This document shows positions 10,214 through 55,920 of a stretch of 64,000 bases of DNA, in pieces. This stretch comes from a bacterium (GTDB taxonomy: Bacteria; Vulcanimicrobiota; Vulcanimicrobiia; Vulcanimicrobiales; SCRA01). How positions within the stretch are numbered: the first letter of the stretch is position 1; each line of letters opens with the position of its first letter. The DNA lies in contig SCRI01000086.1 of the NCBI GenBank assembly GCA_004298675.1, forward strand, positions 124,001-188,000. The letters are read 5' to 3'. The notes under the pieces are model-generated. The model saw only the letters and a program-made list of their open reading frames with translations, was not told the origin of the DNA and ran no database searches. A program made the position numbers and the translations under genes.

Positions 10214-11272
10214 GTGCTACGCCTGATTTTTGCCATCATCCTCGCCGCGACGGGTTTCCTTTTGGGGCGCGAGGCCTACCTGCACTTGCTCTCCCAGCAC
10301 GTCGCGGGACAGTACTGGCAGTTCACGCTGCTCTTCGTGACACCGGTCATCGGTGCCGCGCTGGGCGTGTTGATCGCTCCGTCGGTGCAGCAGCTCTTCG
10401 AGCACGAGCTGACCGAGGCCGAGAGCTCCATCGAGCGCATGTCGCCTCCGGAGATCGTGGGCGGCGCAATCGGGCTCATCGTCGGCCTGCTGATCGCCTT
10501 CCTCGTCCGTCTGGTTCTGCTGGAGTGGTTCGCCGTCGCGGGCGCTGCCGGCACGTATATCGGCCTAGCCCTCTACCTGATCGTCAGCGTCTTCTGCGTG
10601 TACCTGGGCGTGCGCGTGGGCGTGAAGCAGCGGCTGGGATGGCTGGCGCGCACGGGCGGCGGGGTCCCGGCCAACGTACAGCGCGCGATCCCCAAGATCG
10701 TCGACACCTCCGTGATCATCGACGGGCGCATCGTCGATATCGCCAAGACGGGGTTTGTCGACGGGCCGATGGTGGTGCCGCGCTTCGTGCTGCGCGAGCT
10801 GCAGATGATCGCCGACTCGCTCGACTCGCTCAAGCGCACGCGCGGACGGCGGGGGCTGGAGGTACTCTCGACGTTGCAGGAGAGCATGACCCTGGAGATC
10901 GCCGAGTCGGATTACGCGGACATCCACGAGGTCGACGCCAAACTCGTGCGGCTGGCGCGCGATCGCAAAGGCAAGTTGCTCACCAACGACTACAATCTCA
11001 ACCGCGTGGCTCAGCTCGAGGGCGTCACGGTGCTCAATATCAACGAGCTGGCCAATGCCGTCAAGCCGGTGGTGCTGCCGGGTGAGGAGCTCAACGTCAA
11101 CATCATTCGCGACGGCAAGGAGATGAACCAGGGCGTCGGCTATCTGGACGATGGCACCATGATCGTGGTCGAAAACGGCAAGCGGCTGATCGGAGAGCAC
11201 GTCGACGTACAGGTCACGAGCGTCCTGCAGACGGTGGCCGGGCGCATGATCTTCGCGAGGCCCAAGCGCTAG
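10214..11272 (+). CDS. YacL-type membrane PIN/TRAM-domain protein
   Basis: A 352-residue protein with about four N-terminal transmembrane helices (first 140 residues), then a PIN nuclease-like domain and a C-terminal TRAM RNA-binding domain. The PIN domain carries VDTSVIIDGRIVDI and, later, TNDYNLNRVA, which supply the conserved acidic residues. GTG 10214 was chosen because it precedes the first helix and follows the hemW stop by 10 bp; an in-frame ATG at 10169 would lie inside hemW. Its place just before ispD matches yacL of Bacillus subtilis. It may be a membrane-tethered RNase; the substrate is unknown. Confidence 0.88.
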   Translation: MLRLIFAIILAATGFLLGREAYLHLLSQHVAGQYWQFTLLFVTPVIGAALGVLIAPSVQQLFEHELTEAESSIERMSPPEIVGGAIGLIVGLLIAFLVRLVLLEWFAVAGAAGTYIGLALYLIVSVFCVYLGVRVGVKQRLGWLARTGGGVPANVQRAIPKIVDTSVIIDGRIVDIAKTGFVDGPMVVPRFVLRELQMIADSLDSLKRTRGRRGLEVLSTLQESMTLEIAESDYADIHEVDAKLVRLARDRKGKLLTNDYNLNRVAQLEGVTVLNINELANAVKPVVLPGEELNVNIIRDGKEMNQGVGYLDDGTMIVVENGKRLIGEHVDVQVTSVLQTVAGRMIFARPKR

Positions 11273-47783: not shown

Positions 47784-49001
47784 ATGCTTGATGAACTTCG
47801 AAATGCGGTTCAAGAAGCCAACGCCCTCTACTTTGTGACATTGTTGCGAGCGGATGACGCTGGCGCTCGGCGTCCGGACGACACGACCGAGCCATCGATT
47901 GTCGCCCCGGCGACGTACGCGGCGATCCCTGGGGTCCCTAACAGCGGCGGCCCTCGCGTCAATCGCGTTCGGACGCACGACCGCGCTGAGGCCCGGACCG
48001 TCCTAAGCTCAACCGGTGCTGAAGCCCACCGCCATAAGCTTGCCCTCCGCGATGCCCTCGCGGAAGACCCGGCACTTCCCTTCCCACGTGTTCACGTCGA
48101 AGGCGCGGTCGATCTCAAGGGAAAGGGCAGGCGCCCATGGGCGCTCGACATACTCGACCTTCCGCACGGCGGCTCTGATACGTATCTGCGGTGGACGAGC
48201 GAGTGGAGTGAGTTTGACCCGTTTGTCATGGGGTTCGGCCAGCTCGATCTGCGCGACGATGCTACGAGGATCTACCAGCGTTGCATCCACATGCTCCTCG
48301 TGGGCGGCTGGGCGTCGTACTATCGCGCTGCGGCTCGGATACCACGCACTCTAAGCTCTAGCATTGAAGGCATCACGATCCTGCCCAACGATACGGCCGA
48401 CGACCCTCTCGTCACGTACAAAACGCAACGTAGCGATCCTCTCATCAAGGGCACCATCGGTCTCCCTGAGGGAATGAAACCCAAAAAGAAAGACAAAGAT
48501 AAGCTCAGCGCTGAAGGCCTTGGGGATATTCCGGGTAAGCACCCTACGTCGAAGGTGCTCATTGACTACGCGGTTGCCAAGACGACGATCAGCTTCGCTG
48601 GATTGCGCCAAATCCGCTTCGCTGAAAATGGCGGGCGTTCACACGAACGTGACCTCGCTGGCCGAACCGTTGCAGCTGCGCTAGGCTTATTGATGCACGA
48701 GCTTGTTCAGCGGCACGGCTATTACTTGCGCTCTGGCTGCTCCCTAGTGCCAATCTTAGGTAAAACGTCTCGAGTACTTGTCGGTGCCGACGGCCGGGAA
48801 TCTGCATTACCGTGGGATCAGGATGCACGTCCGCGTTTGACCATCGCGAGGGAACTCTACGTTGCCGCTGTGCAGGCCGCCGAGGGAACGGGTCTGCAAT
48901 TCGACCCGGCGCGGACGTTGCATGCGGACCGTAACCTTAACGATGCCGTCTCCCATTCTACGCGTTTCGAGCGCGTCGACGAAGATGAGGGGGTCGCATG
49001 A
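47784..49001 (+). CDS. csb1: Type I-G CRISPR-associated protein Csb1 (Cas7-like backbone)
   Basis: A 405-residue protein of the Csb1/GSU0053 family, the Cas7 subunit that would polymerise along the crRNA in the Cascade-like effector. The family call rests on the pattern of the N-terminal region (RVHVEGAVDLKG, then SEFDPFVMGFGQLD), FAGLRQIRF, and the AAALGLLMHELVQRHGYYLR helix, plus the adjacent csb2 and cas3. A Lys-rich loop (KPKKKDKDK, about residue 235) could touch RNA. It leads a four-gene operon with its own promoter. Confidence 0.85.
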   Translation: MLDELRNAVQEANALYFVTLLRADDAGARRPDDTTEPSIVAPATYAAIPGVPNSGGPRVNRVRTHDRAEARTVLSSTGAEAHRHKLALRDALAEDPALPFPRVHVEGAVDLKGKGRRPWALDILDLPHGGSDTYLRWTSEWSEFDPFVMGFGQLDLRDDATRIYQRCIHMLLVGGWASYYRAAARIPRTLSSSIEGITILPNDTADDPLVTYKTQRSDPLIKGTIGLPEGMKPKKKDKDKLSAEGLGDIPGKHPTSKVLIDYAVAKTTISFAGLRQIRFAENGGRSHERDLAGRTVAAALGLLMHELVQRHGYYLRSGCSLVPILGKTSRVLVGADGRESALPWDQDARPRLTIARELYVAAVQAAEGTGLQFDPARTLHADRNLNDAVSHSTRFERVDEDEGVA

Positions 49002-50443
49002 CGACGATTGCCGCCCGTTTCCTCTCGAATCGATACGTAGCGCGGCGCTCCGACGATCTGGCATCGGCGGAATGGCCCCCTAGCCCCGATCGCCTCTATC
49101 AGGCGCTCGTCAATGCGGCCTCACGGCTCGACGTGGAAAGAGGGAAGGCGCGGGCGTGGCTCGAGTGGCTATCTGGGCAACCGGCGCCGACAATCGTCGC
49201 TGTCCCGCAAGTACAGGAGCGCACAAGACACCGACGTTATGACCCCCGTAACGCCGAGACTCGGCGGCAGGTCGTCGAGCAGGGGCGCAAGCACGTCGTC
49301 ACCTTGATCGACCAGCGTCAAGATCTGATCGATCTCGTCGATACGCCGCTCGCGCACCCCCTCGTCATCTACCACTACGCAGACCGCGTTCCTGACGACC
49401 TGATTAGTGTCGCCGATCGCGTTGCCGCGAACGTAGGCTACCTAGGTACGAGCGAATCCCCCGTACTGCTACGACTTGCCGAACCCATAGTCGGCACCGA
49501 TCATCGCACCTTCGTTCCCGATGATGACGGGGACCTGATACTGCCGACGCCGTATCCAAATCGCCTTGGTGACCTTGACGCGATGTTCGCTGATGCCTAT
49601 CGGCCGGACCGCCCAGTCTGGGCACCATCGCTGCGTATCGACGCGCGGCGTACGCGCTATGCAATCGTCGAGAATCGCAAGTCTAGACCCCGAAGTGGCG
49701 ATTACGAAGATCTCGTCGCACTTGCGTTCACCGTTGCGCCGAACGTCGATTCCCGGTTCTTCCCGGCCTTCGTCGCCGCGGTGCGTGCAGCGTACCTTCG
49801 CCGGCTTCCCGATGGGGTTCACGGGATGCTCTCAGGTCACGATCATACCGCGCCGGATCCGAGCTCTACGGCATACCCCGGTGCGCATGCTGCGTTTCTA
49901 CCGCTTGCCGACGTCAACATGCCGTATGCGAGCTCGCGACTCCGTGGCATCGCCCTGGCTCTACCGTATGCAATGGGCTATGACCCCCGCCGACAAGCGA
50001 TAGCCGCCTTCGATATCGATCACATCGTTGTCGCTGGCAGCAAGTACGAGCTGACGCCGGTCATCCCTCTCGACCGCGAGTTCGAGGCAACCAGACTCGC
50101 ACGTTACAGTCGCGTTGGCCGGACCTGGGCGACGCTGACGCCCATTCGTCTCTGGAAGATGCCCAATCGTAATGGGGGCGATGTTCCGGCGCTAGTCGCG
50201 GAGGCCATCCAGCAGACCGGCTACCCGGAACCGCGGTGGATCGAGATTGGTCCTGCGCCGTATGTGCCCGGCGCGCTCCACGTCACCGCTTACCGTCATC
50301 GATTCGAAAAGCCGTACTGGCTCGTTCACGCCCGATTCCAGTTTAGTGAGCCCGTGCGCGGACCGATGCTCGTTGGGCGAGGACGCTCGGTTGGTTTCGG
50401 CTTCTGCGGACTGGTGAACAGCGCAGGGATGCGGGTCGCGTGA
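48998..50443 (+). CDS. csb2: Type I-G CRISPR-associated protein Csb2 (Cas5-Cas6 fusion)
   Basis: A 481-residue Csb2/GSU0054 protein, a Cas5-Cas6 fusion that would process the repeat hairpin and cap the crRNA ends. The N-terminal RAMP part starts with AARFLSNRYVARR, then EWPPSPDRLYQALVNAA. The C-terminal Cas6-like part has HGMLSGHDHT, offering catalytic His candidates, and the glycine-rich loop VGRGRSVGFGFCGL. The ATG overlaps the csb1 stop (ATGA), and the gene ends in a GTGA overlap with cas3. Expected partner RNA: the hairpin repeats 4 kb downstream. Confidence 0.87.
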   Translation: MTTIAARFLSNRYVARRSDDLASAEWPPSPDRLYQALVNAASRLDVERGKARAWLEWLSGQPAPTIVAVPQVQERTRHRRYDPRNAETRRQVVEQGRKHVVTLIDQRQDLIDLVDTPLAHPLVIYHYADRVPDDLISVADRVAANVGYLGTSESPVLLRLAEPIVGTDHRTFVPDDDGDLILPTPYPNRLGDLDAMFADAYRPDRPVWAPSLRIDARRTRYAIVENRKSRPRSGDYEDLVALAFTVAPNVDSRFFPAFVAAVRAAYLRRLPDGVHGMLSGHDHTAPDPSSTAYPGAHAAFLPLADVNMPYASSRLRGIALALPYAMGYDPRRQAIAAFDIDHIVVAGSKYELTPVIPLDREFEATRLARYSRVGRTWATLTPIRLWKMPNRNGGDVPALVAEAIQQTGYPEPRWIEIGPAPYVPGALHVTAYRHRFEKPYWLVHARFQFSEPVRGPMLVGRGRSVGFGFCGLVNSAGMRVA

Positions 50444-53271
50444 GGTTCGAAGACTTCTTCAGCGCCGTGACCGGGAACACGCCGTTCGACTGGCAGCGTC
50501 GGCTTGCCGATCAGGTCACGCAGAACGATCCAGCACGCGTGAGCTGGCCAGACCTGATCGAGCTTCCTACTTCGGCAGGGAAGACGTCGATCCAACTCAT
50601 CGCGGCGTATGCGCTCGCGGTGCACCCGAACGCACATCGTCGGATCGTCTACGTTATCGACAGGCGTACCGTCGCCGACGATGCCTACGAGACCGCGCAT
50701 ATTCTCCGGGAACGGCTCAGGCGGGGCGATCCTGCCCTGGCCCCGTTTGCCGCTTCTCTTCGTTACAATGTCGGTCTGAAGTCCACGGAACCCTTGCTTG
50801 AGACACATCTCCTCCGCGGAGGTCTCGGAGAGCCGTTGGCGCGATTACGGTCCCCAATCGCGCCAACGATCCTCGTTGGAACAGTAGATCAGCTCGGGTC
50901 GCGACTTTTGTTTCGCGGTTACGGTGTCAGCGAACGCATGCGTCCGGTCGCGGCAGGACTACTCGCCTACGATACGCTCTGGATCGTCGATGAGGCACAT
51001 CTTTCCCCGGCCTTCTTGGACACCCTACGTGCCGTGCGTGCATCGGTCTTGGCATCTCCACTTCCGCACGATCGTCCACTGCACCTCATTGAGATGACTG
51101 CTACCCCGCGCAAGCGCGCCGGGCGAACCGTCTTTGCACTGGGGAGACCCGACGATCGCATCGCTCAGAGAATCAGCTGCTCTAAGCCCGCGTTGATTCG
51201 TGATCCAATTCAGACAAGAGATCTGGTTGCTGCGTTCGCAGCGCTCGTCGAGGAAGCGCTGGGATCAAAATCCTTTCGGCGCCTCGGCGTGATCGTGAAC
51301 CGAGTAGGACTGGCGCGCGAGATTTTCGATGCGCTTCGAAAGGGCGGGTCGAAAGATAGCGCAGACTATCTCTTATTCATCGGTCCGATTCGTCCGTACG
51401 ATCGTAAGTTGCTCTACGAGCGTTCTGCCGCCGTGTCTCTCAAGGCGCAGTCGCACGAGCGACGCGCCCACCCGGTAGTCGCCATCTGCACGCAGACGAT
51501 TGAGGTCGGAGCAGACATCGACTTTGATGCCTTATTCGTCCAAGCGGCACCCCTCGACGCGCTGCGTCAGCGCTTCGGTCGTCATAATCGGCTTGGCTCG
51601 AGCAACGGCACACTTGCGATTATTGTGCCAGAACTGCTCGAAAAAGTGGAGCCCATCTACGGAGATGCCACGCAGCGGACGATACGGTGGTTATGTTCGG
51701 TCGCCCAGAGGGCGTCATCGGGGCAGAAGGTCGATTTCGGCATAGCCGCCATGGACGATGTAGTGGGCCGACTCTCACCGCAAGAGCTTGAGGCGCTGTG
51801 CAGTTCGGGACCACTCGGCGAGCCGCTACATGTGCAACACGCGCGAAACCTCGCTCGCTCCACCAGCCCATGCATCGACGAGCCTGATGTCAGTATCTTC
51901 CTTCACGGAGAGCCTGCGCGTGCCGATGTCCAGCTAGTCTGGCGGGAACTCCCCAAGGACTACGATATCGGTAGGCTCTCGGAAGAGGTCAAGGATGATC
52001 TGTCGGCCGCACCACCTTGTGCTGGGGAAATGCTAAGTATCCCGGTCTATGCGGCGCGTTCCTTCCTTGAGGGTGAGAAGGCGGACGTCGCCGATGTTCC
52101 GGCAGAGTTGGAATCCACGCGTCAGGGCCGCAGGCACGGGGTTAAGGCAATCCGGTGGTCACCGGATAAGGACCAGATTGCCGCTGTTGAGCCTGATCAG
52201 ATTCGACCCGGAGATACCCTCGTGTTACCCCTAAGTGCCGGGGGCTCCGATGAGTTCGGCTGGTCCCCTGATCGTATGGACTCTGTTTCAGACCTTTCCT
52301 TAGCGGCATACTTCGCGAAAAACGGAGACAGAGTTCGAGCCGCGCGAATGAGAGTCTTGGTTGCATTTGACCCTGAGGATGGTCGCACGGTCACCGAGCG
52401 CGTCGACGATGCTCTCACGAACAAGTGTGAAAGCGGTGACGGCTTGCTCGAGCGAGAGATCGCACGTGTACTGATGCAAGTGCCCAAGGACCAACGAACG
52501 ATCCAGCTGATCCAAGCCGCAGGCGGCAACGAACATGCGTGGGTAACCTGGCGCGAGTCGGTGCGCGACGACGAAGATCCAAACGCCGACGCTAGTTCTT
52601 TCACGGTCCGCGTGGGGCTCACCGACCACTTAGAGCACGTTGCCGCCCGCGCACTCGATCTTGCGCAGCGCTGCGGGTTGCTCAAGGAGCTGTGTGAAAA
52701 GCTCTCTCTGGCTGGCCTTCTGCATGACCTCGGCAAGGCCGACGTTCGCTTCCAGACGGTACTTCGCGGGGGCGATCTCATCGGTGCGCTTCGAGCCGAA
52801 GGCCAGACGGAGAACTTGCTGGCGAAGGGCCTTCGGCGATTTGCGGGAGGGGTCCAGCGTAGCGTTGCCGTTCCAATGTCTGAACGCTGGTTCCCTGGCA
52901 TGCGCCACGAAGCGATCTCCGTGGCCATGGCTGGTGTCCAAGACCCGTTGGTCCGTCACCTCATCGGTAGTCATCACGGCTTTGGACGACCGACGTTCCC
53001 GACGATTGAGGATGCGGCGCCGCGTACAGTCCGTGCTCGAATCAACGGAGTCGCATACGAAGCTTCGAGCGACCATCATCTCAATGCGAGCGGCTGGGAT
53101 GAGCAATTTGCCGCGTTGCTCGACGATTACGGAATATGGGGCCTCGCGTATCTAGAGGCAATCTTACGCCTTGCCGACCATCGATGTTCTAGAGAAGAAG
53201 AGAGCGGGTCTGTGTTGGGGCTCCCAGAGCGGGATGGAGGAAACTCGTGCAGCTTGAGCTCGACGGTCTAG
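50440..53271 (+). CDS. cas3: Cas3 helicase-nuclease with C-terminal HD domain
   Basis: A 943-residue protein that would unwind and degrade target DNA recruited by the effector. Helicase first: Walker A LPTSAGKTS (about residues 42-50), the DEAH box in WIVDEAH (about 184), EMTATP, TQTIEVGADIDFD and LRQRFGRHNR (motif VI). The HD nuclease is at the C-terminus: TDHLEHVAARA, LLHDLGKAD (about 761-769), MRHEAISVA and LIGSHHGFG. This helicase-then-HD order is typical of type I-G. All metal ligands look intact, so interference should be active. GTG start, coupled to csb2. Confidence 0.93.
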   Translation: MRFEDFFSAVTGNTPFDWQRRLADQVTQNDPARVSWPDLIELPTSAGKTSIQLIAAYALAVHPNAHRRIVYVIDRRTVADDAYETAHILRERLRRGDPALAPFAASLRYNVGLKSTEPLLETHLLRGGLGEPLARLRSPIAPTILVGTVDQLGSRLLFRGYGVSERMRPVAAGLLAYDTLWIVDEAHLSPAFLDTLRAVRASVLASPLPHDRPLHLIEMTATPRKRAGRTVFALGRPDDRIAQRISCSKPALIRDPIQTRDLVAAFAALVEEALGSKSFRRLGVIVNRVGLAREIFDALRKGGSKDSADYLLFIGPIRPYDRKLLYERSAAVSLKAQSHERRAHPVVAICTQTIEVGADIDFDALFVQAAPLDALRQRFGRHNRLGSSNGTLAIIVPELLEKVEPIYGDATQRTIRWLCSVAQRASSGQKVDFGIAAMDDVVGRLSPQELEALCSSGPLGEPLHVQHARNLARSTSPCIDEPDVSIFLHGEPARADVQLVWRELPKDYDIGRLSEEVKDDLSAAPPCAGEMLSIPVYAARSFLEGEKADVADVPAELESTRQGRRHGVKAIRWSPDKDQIAAVEPDQIRPGDTLVLPLSAGGSDEFGWSPDRMDSVSDLSLAAYFAKNGDRVRAARMRVLVAFDPEDGRTVTERVDDALTNKCESGDGLLEREIARVLMQVPKDQRTIQLIQAAGGNEHAWVTWRESVRDDEDPNADASSFTVRVGLTDHLEHVAARALDLAQRCGLLKELCEKLSLAGLLHDLGKADVRFQTVLRGGDLIGALRAEGQTENLLAKGLRRFAGGVQRSVAVPMSERWFPGMRHEAISVAMAGVQDPLVRHLIGSHHGFGRPTFPTIEDAAPRTVRARINGVAYEASSDHHLNASGWDEQFAALLDDYGIWGLAYLEAILRLADHRCSREEESGSVLGLPERDGGNSCSLSSTV

Positions 53272-54269
53272 ACGGCTCGAATCCTCTTGCATTCCTAGCG
53301 GCCCTTGGCGTCCTTGCGACCGTTGGAGGGAGACTCGCGTGGGTGGAGCACGGAGCGGCCTGGAGGCCGATAATCACCGAGTTGTCAAGCGATATAAGTA
53401 TGGAGCAACTCGCCGACGTTCTCTATTCGCGGCTCCAGGCGGTTCCGTTCGCCTACACACTCGCCCAACCAGGCGAAGCGCCATACGAAGATTTTGCGAC
53501 GCGAAAGAAGGACCCCGCGACGACGACGGTTCGCCTTGTTGACGGCGAGACGGCCTTTCGTGCCGCAATCGAACGGGCGGCGATTGAGTGCCAAAATAGC
53601 GGCGATTGCGCCGAGCTCGAACGACTCGCGGCCCATACGTGTGTGCTCGGCGTACGCAAGGGTAGCACGACGGACGTGCGGTCCGTCTCCGGGCCCGTGC
53701 GTTACCTTTCCAATATCCGTGCCATCGTGGAAGCGACGACACGTGAGGACATCGCACGCGCGTTGTTCGAGCGTTGGCAGTATTATGCGGGCGAAGTAAA
53801 GCGTAAGAAAGAACGAGGTAGGATAAAGGGCCCAGGAAAGCGACCGAAGCTCGGCCTCGATCCCCGGGCCGTTGTCGAGAATGTTCCCGTTAACATCGCC
53901 GGCCTCGGTTCGATCTCCGAACTTGGCGCTGAACGACTCGCGCTCGAGGGATTGCGCGCCCTTCCCACTAGCATCCACGGTGGGAGGCTTGTTACCCGCG
54001 GTTACCATTATAGGCGGGGTAGGGCTTACGCATTTCGCTGGGTGCTCTCGCGAAGCCCTCGCTCGCTGCGAACGAGCTCGGAGCTTCTGGCGAGCGCGCC
54101 ATTGGACTTTAGCCCCGATGGCCGAGATCAAGGGCGCGCAGCCCTGTTGTGCTGGATGCGAGATCTCGGGGTTGCCGCGTTGTTCGAGTCCCGGCTCCGG
54201 TACTATGGGCAAGGGTACAAGCAGTTACTTCCGGCGGTAGCGATAGCGGAAGCGGGTTCGAGCGCTTAG
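53247..54269 (+). CDS. Fourth cas protein of the I-G operon, Cas8-position candidate
   Basis: A 340-residue protein starting LDGLDGSNPLAFLAALGVL, a motif-like opening often seen at the start of large-subunit or accessory proteins of this subtype. It overlaps cas3 by 25 bp, with GGAGG 6 nt before the GTG. A basic stretch (KRKKERGRIKGPGKRPK, about residues 188-204) could bind nucleic acid. By position it should be the large subunit (Cas8u/Csb3/Csx17 role) for PAM recognition. It is clearly shorter than typical Csx17, and I cannot assign it to Csb3 or Csx17 by sequence alone. Confidence 0.65.
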   Translation: MQLELDGLDGSNPLAFLAALGVLATVGGRLAWVEHGAAWRPIITELSSDISMEQLADVLYSRLQAVPFAYTLAQPGEAPYEDFATRKKDPATTTVRLVDGETAFRAAIERAAIECQNSGDCAELERLAAHTCVLGVRKGSTTDVRSVSGPVRYLSNIRAIVEATTREDIARALFERWQYYAGEVKRKKERGRIKGPGKRPKLGLDPRAVVENVPVNIAGLGSISELGAERLALEGLRALPTSIHGGRLVTRGYHYRRGRAYAFRWVLSRSPRSLRTSSELLASAPLDFSPDGRDQGRAALLCWMRDLGVAALFESRLRYYGQGYKQLLPAVAIAEAGSSA

Positions 54270-54436
54270 GTAATGGAGAGTATAACCGGAGGCGCTCGAT
54301 CCCCGGTTTTGCGCGGAAAATCACTGGGATCCACCGTGAAATGCACCTTGAAAGCTGAAAAGCAAAGTCGCCAGGGAATACCCGCTCGAAAAATGAGGCT
54401 CATTTCGAGACGGCACCAGGCGGTTTAATACCTGCC
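54270..54436 (+). promoter_or_regulatory. CRISPR leader region
   Basis: The 167 bp between the last cas gene and the first repeat. Placement next to the least degenerate repeats marks it as the leader end. It includes a hairpin-forming inverted repeat at 54385-54409 (arms CTCGAAAAATGAG and CTCATTTCGAG, a 2-nt bulge). No T tract follows it, so it is not a simple terminator. A weak TTGAAA (54348-54353) is the only -35-like hexamer noticed; no good -10 goes with it. Confidence 0.6.
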
Positions 54437-55920
54437 GTTTCCGCGCCCACTAGGGCGCGGCTCTGTTGAAGGTTGGCGATAGAGATGATCTCGTCGCCGT
54501 TCGATTCGGTTTCCGCGCCCACTAGGGCGCGGCTCTGTTGAAGGCAATTGAAAGCGACGCATTTGGATTCGATGACCTATGTTTCCGCGCCCACTAGGGC
54601 GCGGCTCTGTTGAAGGTTATTCGATGGGGCTAACACGACGGAGATCCTTGGGTTTCCGCGCCCACTAGGGCGCGGCTCTGTTGAAGGTACGAAACTCGCG
54701 TCGTTGCACTCGAAACCGTCGAGTTTCCGCGCCCACTAGGGCGCGGCTCTGTTGAAGGGCGCTCGATTGGCGCGTACGTTCCGTGATTCTCGAGTTTCCG
54801 CGCCCACTAGGGCGCGGCTCTGTTGAAGGGATCATCTATGGCTGTGGGCTTCTTGTCCTCGGCTGAGTTTCCGCGCCCACTAGGGCGCGGCTCTGTTGAA
54901 GGCCTGCCCCGATCTTGCGGTCGAAGAAATGGCGGTCGTTTCCGCGCCCACTAGGGCGCGGCTCTGTTGAAGGCGCTGCTTGCTGCTGGCGTTATAGATA
55001 ACATGTCGCGTTTCCGCGCCCACTAGGGCGCGGCTCTGTTGAAGGACATAGAGACGATTACCGGTGGTTCCGTCAATGCGGTTTCCGCGCCCACTAGGGC
55101 GCGGCTCTGTTGAAGGCGGTCCAGATCGAGCGTTTCCCCGATCTTGACCATAATTTCCGCGCCCACTAGGGCGCGGCTCTGTTGAAGGTGGAAGTGCGGG
55201 CGAGTCTGGGTCACGGAAGGAGCAGTTTCCGCGCCCACTAGGGCGCGGCTCTGTTGAAGGATCCAATCGCGCTGATCCCCGGCCGCGACGAGGTCATGTT
55301 TCCGCGCCCACTAGGGCGCGGCTCTGTTGAAGGATCGCGCCCACCGGAACGACGTCGAGCGGAAAGGTCGTTTCCGCGCCCACTAGGGCGCGGCTCTGTT
55401 GAAGGTCGGAGATCCACAGGGCCTTGGTCCGTCCGTGTGCGTTTCCGCGTCCGCTAGGGCGCGGCTCTGTTGAAGGTTTGGCAGCTGGCGCATCAGCATC
55501 CCTGTCGCAACGTGTTTTCGCGCCCACTAGGGCGCGGCTCTGTTGAAGGAGGTGATGGCCGAAGTTGAGCGTGCCGCTTCCGGTCGGTTTCCGCGTCCAC
55601 TAGGGCGCGGCTCTGTTGAAGCGAGGAAGAGTTTCTCGCGCACATCGTTCTGCCGGACGAGTTTCCGCGTCTACTGGCGCGCGGTTCTGTAGAAGCCCGT
55701 ACCCGTATACTAACCAATGGCTCACCATCACGTCCTGGTGTTTCCGCGTCTACTGGGACGCGGCTCTGTTGAAGCCCGGAAGCTCGGTGCGCGTTGTTCT
55801 TCAAGGTGATGGTTTCCTTGCCCGCTAGGGCGCGGCTCTGTTGAAGCGCTGTCACGTCGGTCGACGCGTTGATGTCGCGGATGCATTTCCGCGTCCGCTG
55901 GAGCGCGGCTCTGTTGAAGG
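54437..55920 (+). CRISPR. Type I-G CRISPR array: 21 repeats of 36 bp, 20 spacers
   Basis: Repeats start at 54437, 54509, 54581, 54652, 54723, 54794, 54867, 54938, 55010, 55081, 55153, 55225, 55298, 55370, 55441, 55514, 55587, 55661, 55740, 55812 and 55885. Spacers are 35-38 bp, except one of 43 bp (55697-55739). The consensus repeat begins GTTTCCGCGCCC and ends CTGTTGAAGG. Its centre is a perfect 8-bp hairpin, CCGCGCCC/GGGCGCGG around ACTA, the likely Csb2 (Cas6) cleavage site. Repeats 1-10 and 12-14 look identical, repeat 11 differs in its first base, and 15-21 carry increasing changes. The degenerate end marks the old (leader-distal) side, so transcription should run rightward from the cas side. 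Confidence 0.98.

What the first reader, a model, noticed from the sequence alone, without database searches (positions are those of the whole stretch)
47784..55920. Type I-G CRISPR-Cas locus without any adaptation genes
Four tightly coupled genes (csb1, csb2, cas3, a short fourth protein) are followed directly by the array, and no cas1, cas2 or cas4 lies within 47 kb before or 8 kb after. Type I-G loci usually carry a cas4-cas1 fusion and cas2. Cas3 motifs and the repeat hairpin are intact, so the locus looks able to interfere but not to acquire on its own. It may depend on a second system in the genome or may have frozen.
Basis: partly seen in the sequence, partly recalled or inferred. Interest (0 to 1): 0.75.

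Follow-up and report, generated by a model that had tools for sequence, protein, structure and literature searches.

The report
CRISPR locus lacking its own adaptation genes
A bacterial CRISPR immune locus that can attack invaders but has no genes of its own for recording new ones lies in a genome that does carry a recording enzyme at a second CRISPR locus, where the partner gene cas2 has been cut by a repeated element; such incomplete loci are common, so the locus itself is fairly ordinary.

Summary
The local observation is right: csb1-csb2-cas3g-small Cas8g-leader-array (47784-55920), with no adaptation genes on either side. The genome-level reading is only partly right. The same 3.03 Mb assembly holds a second type I-G locus on contig C58 (cas3g-csx17-csb1-csb2-cas4/cas1 fusion-cas2). 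Its cas2 is cut after codon 28 by a repeat that also sits at the ends of five other contigs. No other Cas1 and no intact Cas2 was found, and the window array is the only I-G array found. The locus is a known I-G variant: all 80 closest Cas3 relatives carry the small Cas8, and 8 of 23 with at least 4 kb on both sides lack adaptation genes. The array looks recently built: 20 unique spacers, 13 of the first 14 repeats identical, decay only at the far end. Its leader keeps two GCTCG boxes, at -52 and -142. The -52 box occurs in 31 of 36 I-G leaders and 6 of 6 held-out ones; the second box lies at helically phased distances. Best reading: an interference-only locus whose array was fed by a Cas4/1-Cas2, probably that of C58, with acquisition now probably stopped by the cas2 break.

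The parts
47784..49001 (+). csb1 (Cas7g), 405 aa, diverged
   Evidence: PF09617 E 2.3e-9 over cut-off; PADLOC Cas7g E 4.9e-10; NCBIfam TIGR02570 only 13.8 bits
48998..50443 (+). csb2 (Cas5-Cas6 fusion), 481 aa, starts 4 nt inside csb1
   Evidence: TIGR02165 195 bits, cut-off 45
50440..53271 (+). cas3g, helicase followed by C-terminal HD nuclease, 943 aa
   Evidence: TIGR02621 681 bits, cut-off 400; motif residues invariant in alignment A1
53247..54269 (+). small Cas8g-type protein ('Cas3-extension family'), 340 aa
   Evidence: NF049934 115 bits, cut-off 65; PADLOC Cas8g E 1.2e-32; the same profile weakly hits the start of Csx17
54270..54436 (+). leader, 167 nt between the last cas gene and repeat 1
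   Evidence: Lies at the conserved end of the array; carries both I-G leader boxes
54295..54299 (+). upstream leader box CTCGA (within GGCGCTCGAT), -142 from repeat 1
   Evidence: Second box found in 32 of 36 I-G leaders; shuffles give 2.6 on average
54385..54391 (+). downstream leader box CTCGAAA (within ACCCGCTCGAAA), -52 from repeat 1
   Evidence: 31 of 36 I-G leaders have CTCG[AC] at -51 to -53; shuffles give 0.36 on average, at most 3; 6 of 6 held-out leaders
54437..55920 (+). CRISPR array, 21 repeats (GTTTCCGCGCCCACTAGGGCGCGGCTCTGTTGAAGG), 20 unique spacers of 35-43 nt; last seven repeats degenerate
   Evidence: no other copy of the repeat in the genome

Best explanation
This is an interference-only type I-G locus of the small-Cas8 variant with its own array. 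Csb2 would cut the transcript 4 nt after the hairpin, leaving the 8-nt handle GTTGAAGG; Csb1, Csb2 and the small Cas8 would form the surveillance complex and recruit Cas3 (inferred from homology). The array was extended until recently by a Cas4/1-Cas2 complex that reads the leader boxes at -52 and -142. The most likely source is the second I-G locus of the same genome (contig C58), working in trans. In the sequenced genome that cas2 is cut by a repeated, IS-like element after codon 28, so acquisition has probably stopped while interference can go on. Shown: the genes, the array, the second locus, the cut cas2, the leader boxes. Inferred: that C58 fed this array, and that acquisition is now off.
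For: One Cas1 in the genome, a 550-aa Cas4/Cas1 fusion on C58 (NF049935 711 bits) beside cas3g, csx17, csb1 and csb2. cas2 begins at L002:11160 and loses homology at 11240, where a ~118-bp sequence starts that also lies at the ends of contigs C78, C26, C17, C51 and C33 at 99-100% identity; the rest of cas2 is not in the assembly. C58 matches the window in tetranucleotide usage, r 0.83-0.87. Repeats 1-14 carry 1 change in 504 nt, repeats 15-21 carry 26 in 252 nt, so the array grew at the leader end until recently. The leader keeps both boxes; ACCCGCTCGAAA is identical, at the same offset, in three same-order loci whose Cas4/1 is 69-70% identical to that of C58. Pairs of one adaptation-less small-Cas8 I-G locus and a separate I-G locus with Cas4/1 also occur in G201 and in G202, there on one complete chromosome 0.6 Mb apart.
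Against: C58 carries no array to compare. The window repeat is no closer to those of the order (23-25 of 36 identical) than to others (up to 27), and the whole leader is not clearly closest to theirs. Box spacing is 90 nt here and 78-80 in the same-order leaders. The boxes are general to I-G, so they do not single out C58 as the donor. A recent loss of adaptation genes in cis would leave the same traces.
Confidence: 0.5

Rival explanations
1. Recent loss in cis: the locus once had cas4/1-cas2 between the small Cas8 gene and the leader, as most relatives do; a deletion removed them and left the leader and a still-fresh array. C58 is irrelevant to it.
For: In G143 and most of the surveyed loci the order is csb1-csb2-cas3-small Cas8-cas4/1-cas2-array. 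A clean deletion would give exactly the window's arrangement. The array repeat is not closest to those of the order's Csx17-type loci.
Against: No gene remnant lies in the 167 nt between the last gene and repeat 1. The ACCCGCTCGAAA box matches same-order leaders, while the leader of the G143 locus has no CTCGAAA.
Confidence: 0.3
2. Long frozen: the locus lost acquisition long ago and keeps an old, fixed set of spacers used for interference or another role.
For: Adaptation-less loci of this variant are common. No protospacers were found in phage or plasmid records, nor for four spacers in IMG/VR.
Against: Decay is confined to the far end; an old frozen array should decay throughout. Leader boxes are kept, whereas they are absent from three adaptation-less loci of another clade (L158, L159, L175). 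Missing protospacers say little for a poorly sampled host.
Confidence: 0.12
3. Assembly artefact: C58 is a contaminant contig, or the cas2 break is a mis-join at a repeat, so the true genome has either no adaptation genes or an intact cas2 and an unassembled array.
For: 87 contigs; C58 is 11 kb and ends inside the repeat. The best Cas4/1 matches come from another family of the order, and the three congeners searched lack it.
Against: The same repeat ends five other contigs of this assembly, C58 has the composition of the window, and homology to cas2 stops exactly where the repeat's shared end begins.
Confidence: 0.08

Closest known systems
Type I-G loci with the small Cas8g / Cas3-extension protein (NF049934, PADLOC PDLC01514)
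   Same: Same gene order csb1-csb2-cas3-small Cas8 in nearly all of the 80 surveyed loci from many phyla
   Different: Most, but not all, have cas4/1 and cas2 next to the effector genes; this one and 8 of 23 well-flanked relatives do not
Canonical type I-G with Csx17 (Geobacter / Thioalkalivibrio type)
   Same: Csb1, Csb2, Cas3g; 36-nt repeat with 12 nt after the hairpin, fitting Csb2 cleavage 4 nt past the stem and an 8-nt handle (PMC9638904)
   Different: A 340-aa small Cas8 in place of the ~700-aa Csx17; the C58 locus of the same genome is of the canonical kind
Loci that take spacers in trans from another system (type III-B from I-B, plasmid type IV, type VI from II-C; reviewed in PMC12814883)
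   Same: An effector locus with an array but without adaptation genes, beside a locus that has them
   Different: Here donor and receiver are of the same subtype, and transfer is inferred, not shown

Membership tests
Type I-G CRISPR-Cas (effector module) | Cas3g | tested here: met
   TIGR02621 681 bits against a cut-off of 400
Type I-G CRISPR-Cas (effector module) | Csb2 (Cas5-Cas6) | tested here: met
   TIGR02165 195 bits against a cut-off of 45
Type I-G CRISPR-Cas (effector module) | Csb1 (Cas7g) | tested here: met
   PF09617 37.9 bits over its cut-off of 25 and PADLOC Cas7g; below the NCBIfam cut-off, so diverged
Type I-G CRISPR-Cas (effector module) | Large subunit: Csx17 or the small Cas8g variant | tested here: met
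   Small variant, NF049934 115 bits
Complete type I-G locus | Cas4/Cas1 fusion and Cas2 encoded in cis | tested here: not met
   None in the window; the fusion is on another contig and no intact cas2 was found
Type I-G CRISPR-Cas (array) | 36-nt repeat with a hairpin and a TTGAAG 3' end | tested here: met
Acquisition in trans from the C58 locus | The C58 Cas4/1-Cas2 integrates spacers at this leader | not testable with these tools
   Indirect support only: shared leader boxes

The most novel reading that the evidence does not exclude
Type I-G leaders across phyla carry a two-box integration signal, GCTCG[A/C]AA at -52 and GCTCG at about -131, -142 or -153, set one helical turn apart, read by Cas4/1-Cas2 or a host DNA-bending protein; it lets one Cas4/1-Cas2 serve the arrays of several I-G effectors in a genome, so that adaptation-less I-G loci such as this one are satellites of a complete I-G locus.
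Probability: 0.3. Interest if true: 0.65.

Novelty: new member of a known kind. Interest (0 to 1): 0.4.

Why it matters
The locus shows how an I-G effector can live without adaptation genes beside a complete I-G locus, and how one insertion in cas2 may freeze a whole genome's CRISPR memory. The leader boxes found on the way give a concrete target for an open question: what marks the integration site in type I-G, where a host factor has been suggested but none is named (PMC10504553).

Tried and rejected
Three batches of family searches failed on a frame that held stop codons, in three libraries each, and were repeated with the 28-aa cas2 fragment. A search of IMG/VR with the small Cas8 found nothing. 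Protospacer searches in phages and plasmids and four exact spacer scans of IMG/VR found nothing; one 31-nt phage match at E 0.4 is chance. Looking for an empty site in congeners was inconclusive: upstream and downstream genes occur but not side by side in what was read. I first took the ACCCGCTCGAAA box as specific to the order; a wider set showed the box to be general to I-G, and the whole leader and the repeat are not closest to the order's, so that argument was weakened. G205 and G206 were dropped as examples of in-trans pairs because their Cas4/1 lies on the same contig, about 10 kb downstream; G204 is undecided because its contigs break at the array.

Full report
What is there. The family searches give Csb1 (diverged), Csb2, Cas3g and a 340-aa protein of the 'Cas3-extension' family, which PADLOC calls Cas8g. 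The array has 21 repeats of 36 nt and 20 unique spacers. Repeats 1-14 are identical but for one base; repeats 15-21 carry 26 changes, so the leader is at the cas side. The 36-nt repeat has an 8-bp stem followed by 12 nt; Csb2 of Thioalkalivibrio cuts 4 nt past the stem and leaves an 8-nt handle (PMC9638904), which would give GTTGAAGG here and fits transcription away from the cas genes.

Adaptation genes in the genome. One Cas1 was found, in a Cas4/Cas1 fusion on contig C58. C58 (11357 bp, L002) holds cas3g, csx17, csb1, csb2, the fusion and the start of cas2. After 28 codons the cas2 homology ends, and the last ~118 bp of the contig also form the ends of contigs C78, C26, C17, C51 and C33 at 99-100% identity. 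This is what an insertion of a recent multi-copy element looks like in a short-read assembly; no transposase was read, so 'IS' is an inference. The rest of cas2 was not found even with a full-length relative as query, nor any other Cas2. The window repeat occurs nowhere else, and no second leader-plus-repeat of this pattern exists in the assembly. C58 has the composition of the window.

How common the arrangement is. A scan of GTDB species genomes with the Cas3 alignment gave 240 relatives, of which the best 80 were kept. All 80 have the small Cas8. Of the 23 with at least 4 kb on both sides, 15 have a Cas4/1 hit and 8 have none (one of the 15, L113, has only broken pieces). For 13 genomes with a locus lacking, or apparently lacking, adaptation genes, PF01867 was searched genome-wide: 11 have some Cas1. 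In G202 (complete chromosome) and G201 a separate I-G locus with Cas4/1, cas2 and a long array is present; G203 has a Cas4/1-cas2-array on another contig, and G209 a second I-G set with cas3, csb1, csb2, cas2 and the fusion. So the finding is a member of a known and frequent kind.

Leader boxes. Aligning leaders showed CTCGAAA at -52 in the window and at -51 to -53 in five same-order loci. In 36 de-duplicated I-G leaders, 31 have CTCG[AC] at -51 to -53 (shuffles: mean 0.36, maximum 3), and 32 have a second one at -129 to -155 (shuffles: mean 2.6, maximum 7). The distances between the two boxes fall at 78-82, 87-91 and 98-103; no uniform random set in 20,000 was as periodic. These counts include the window itself, and the positions were chosen after looking at the leaders. 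A held-out set of loci fetched afterwards gave 6 of 6 readable leaders with the first box at -52 and a second box at distances 86, 90, 91, 91, 93 and 101; three further stretches had no readable array. The second-box classes are thus slightly broader than in the first set. Five of the 36 lack the first box; three of these (L158, L159, L175) belong to one adaptation-less clade with 37-nt repeats. I found no description of such boxes for I-G in the open library, but the paper most likely to hold one (on motif phasing in CRISPR leaders, Current Biology 2021) is not held, so novelty is unproven.

Reading. The array was being extended until recently by an I-G integrase. C58 is the only source in the genome, and trans use is known for other types (PMC12814883); a recent loss in cis would look the same. 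The repeat and the whole leader do not single out C58's relatives. If cas2 is truly cut, as the sequence shows, acquisition is now probably off.

Noticed in passing
leaders of I-G arrays in L098-L177, L056-L061, L213, L214, L218, L234-L242: Two-box leader signature GCTCG[A/C]AA at -52 and GCTCG at -129 to -155 with helical phasing.
   Followed up: partly
L230:2359-3996, L232:1197-3173, L233:1995-3494, L231 (same-order genomes): Cas1-domain proteins of about 480-680 aa without a Cas4 part, several per genome; at least two (L230, L232) carry a C-terminal cysteine-rich and HTH-like stretch by eye. PF01867 E 1e-35 to 1e-40. Possibly mobile.
   Followed up: partly
contig C58 (L002:11240-11357) and ends of C78, C26, C17, C51, C33: Shared ~118-bp end of a multi-copy element; on C17 the flank next to it reads GTTTCCCCCGCGTCTACTAGG, which resembles the window repeat and may be chance.
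   Followed up: no
window:55587-55847 against 54437-55549: Repeats 17-20 end in GAAGC, repeats 1-16 in GAAGG; most I-G arrays with cis Cas4/1 end in C, several adaptation-less ones in G.
   Followed up: no
L140 (G202): Small-Cas8 I-G locus with the order cas3-Cas8-csb1-csb2 and no array found in the ~40 kb read around it, while a 104-repeat I-G array lies 0.6 Mb away.
   Followed up: partly
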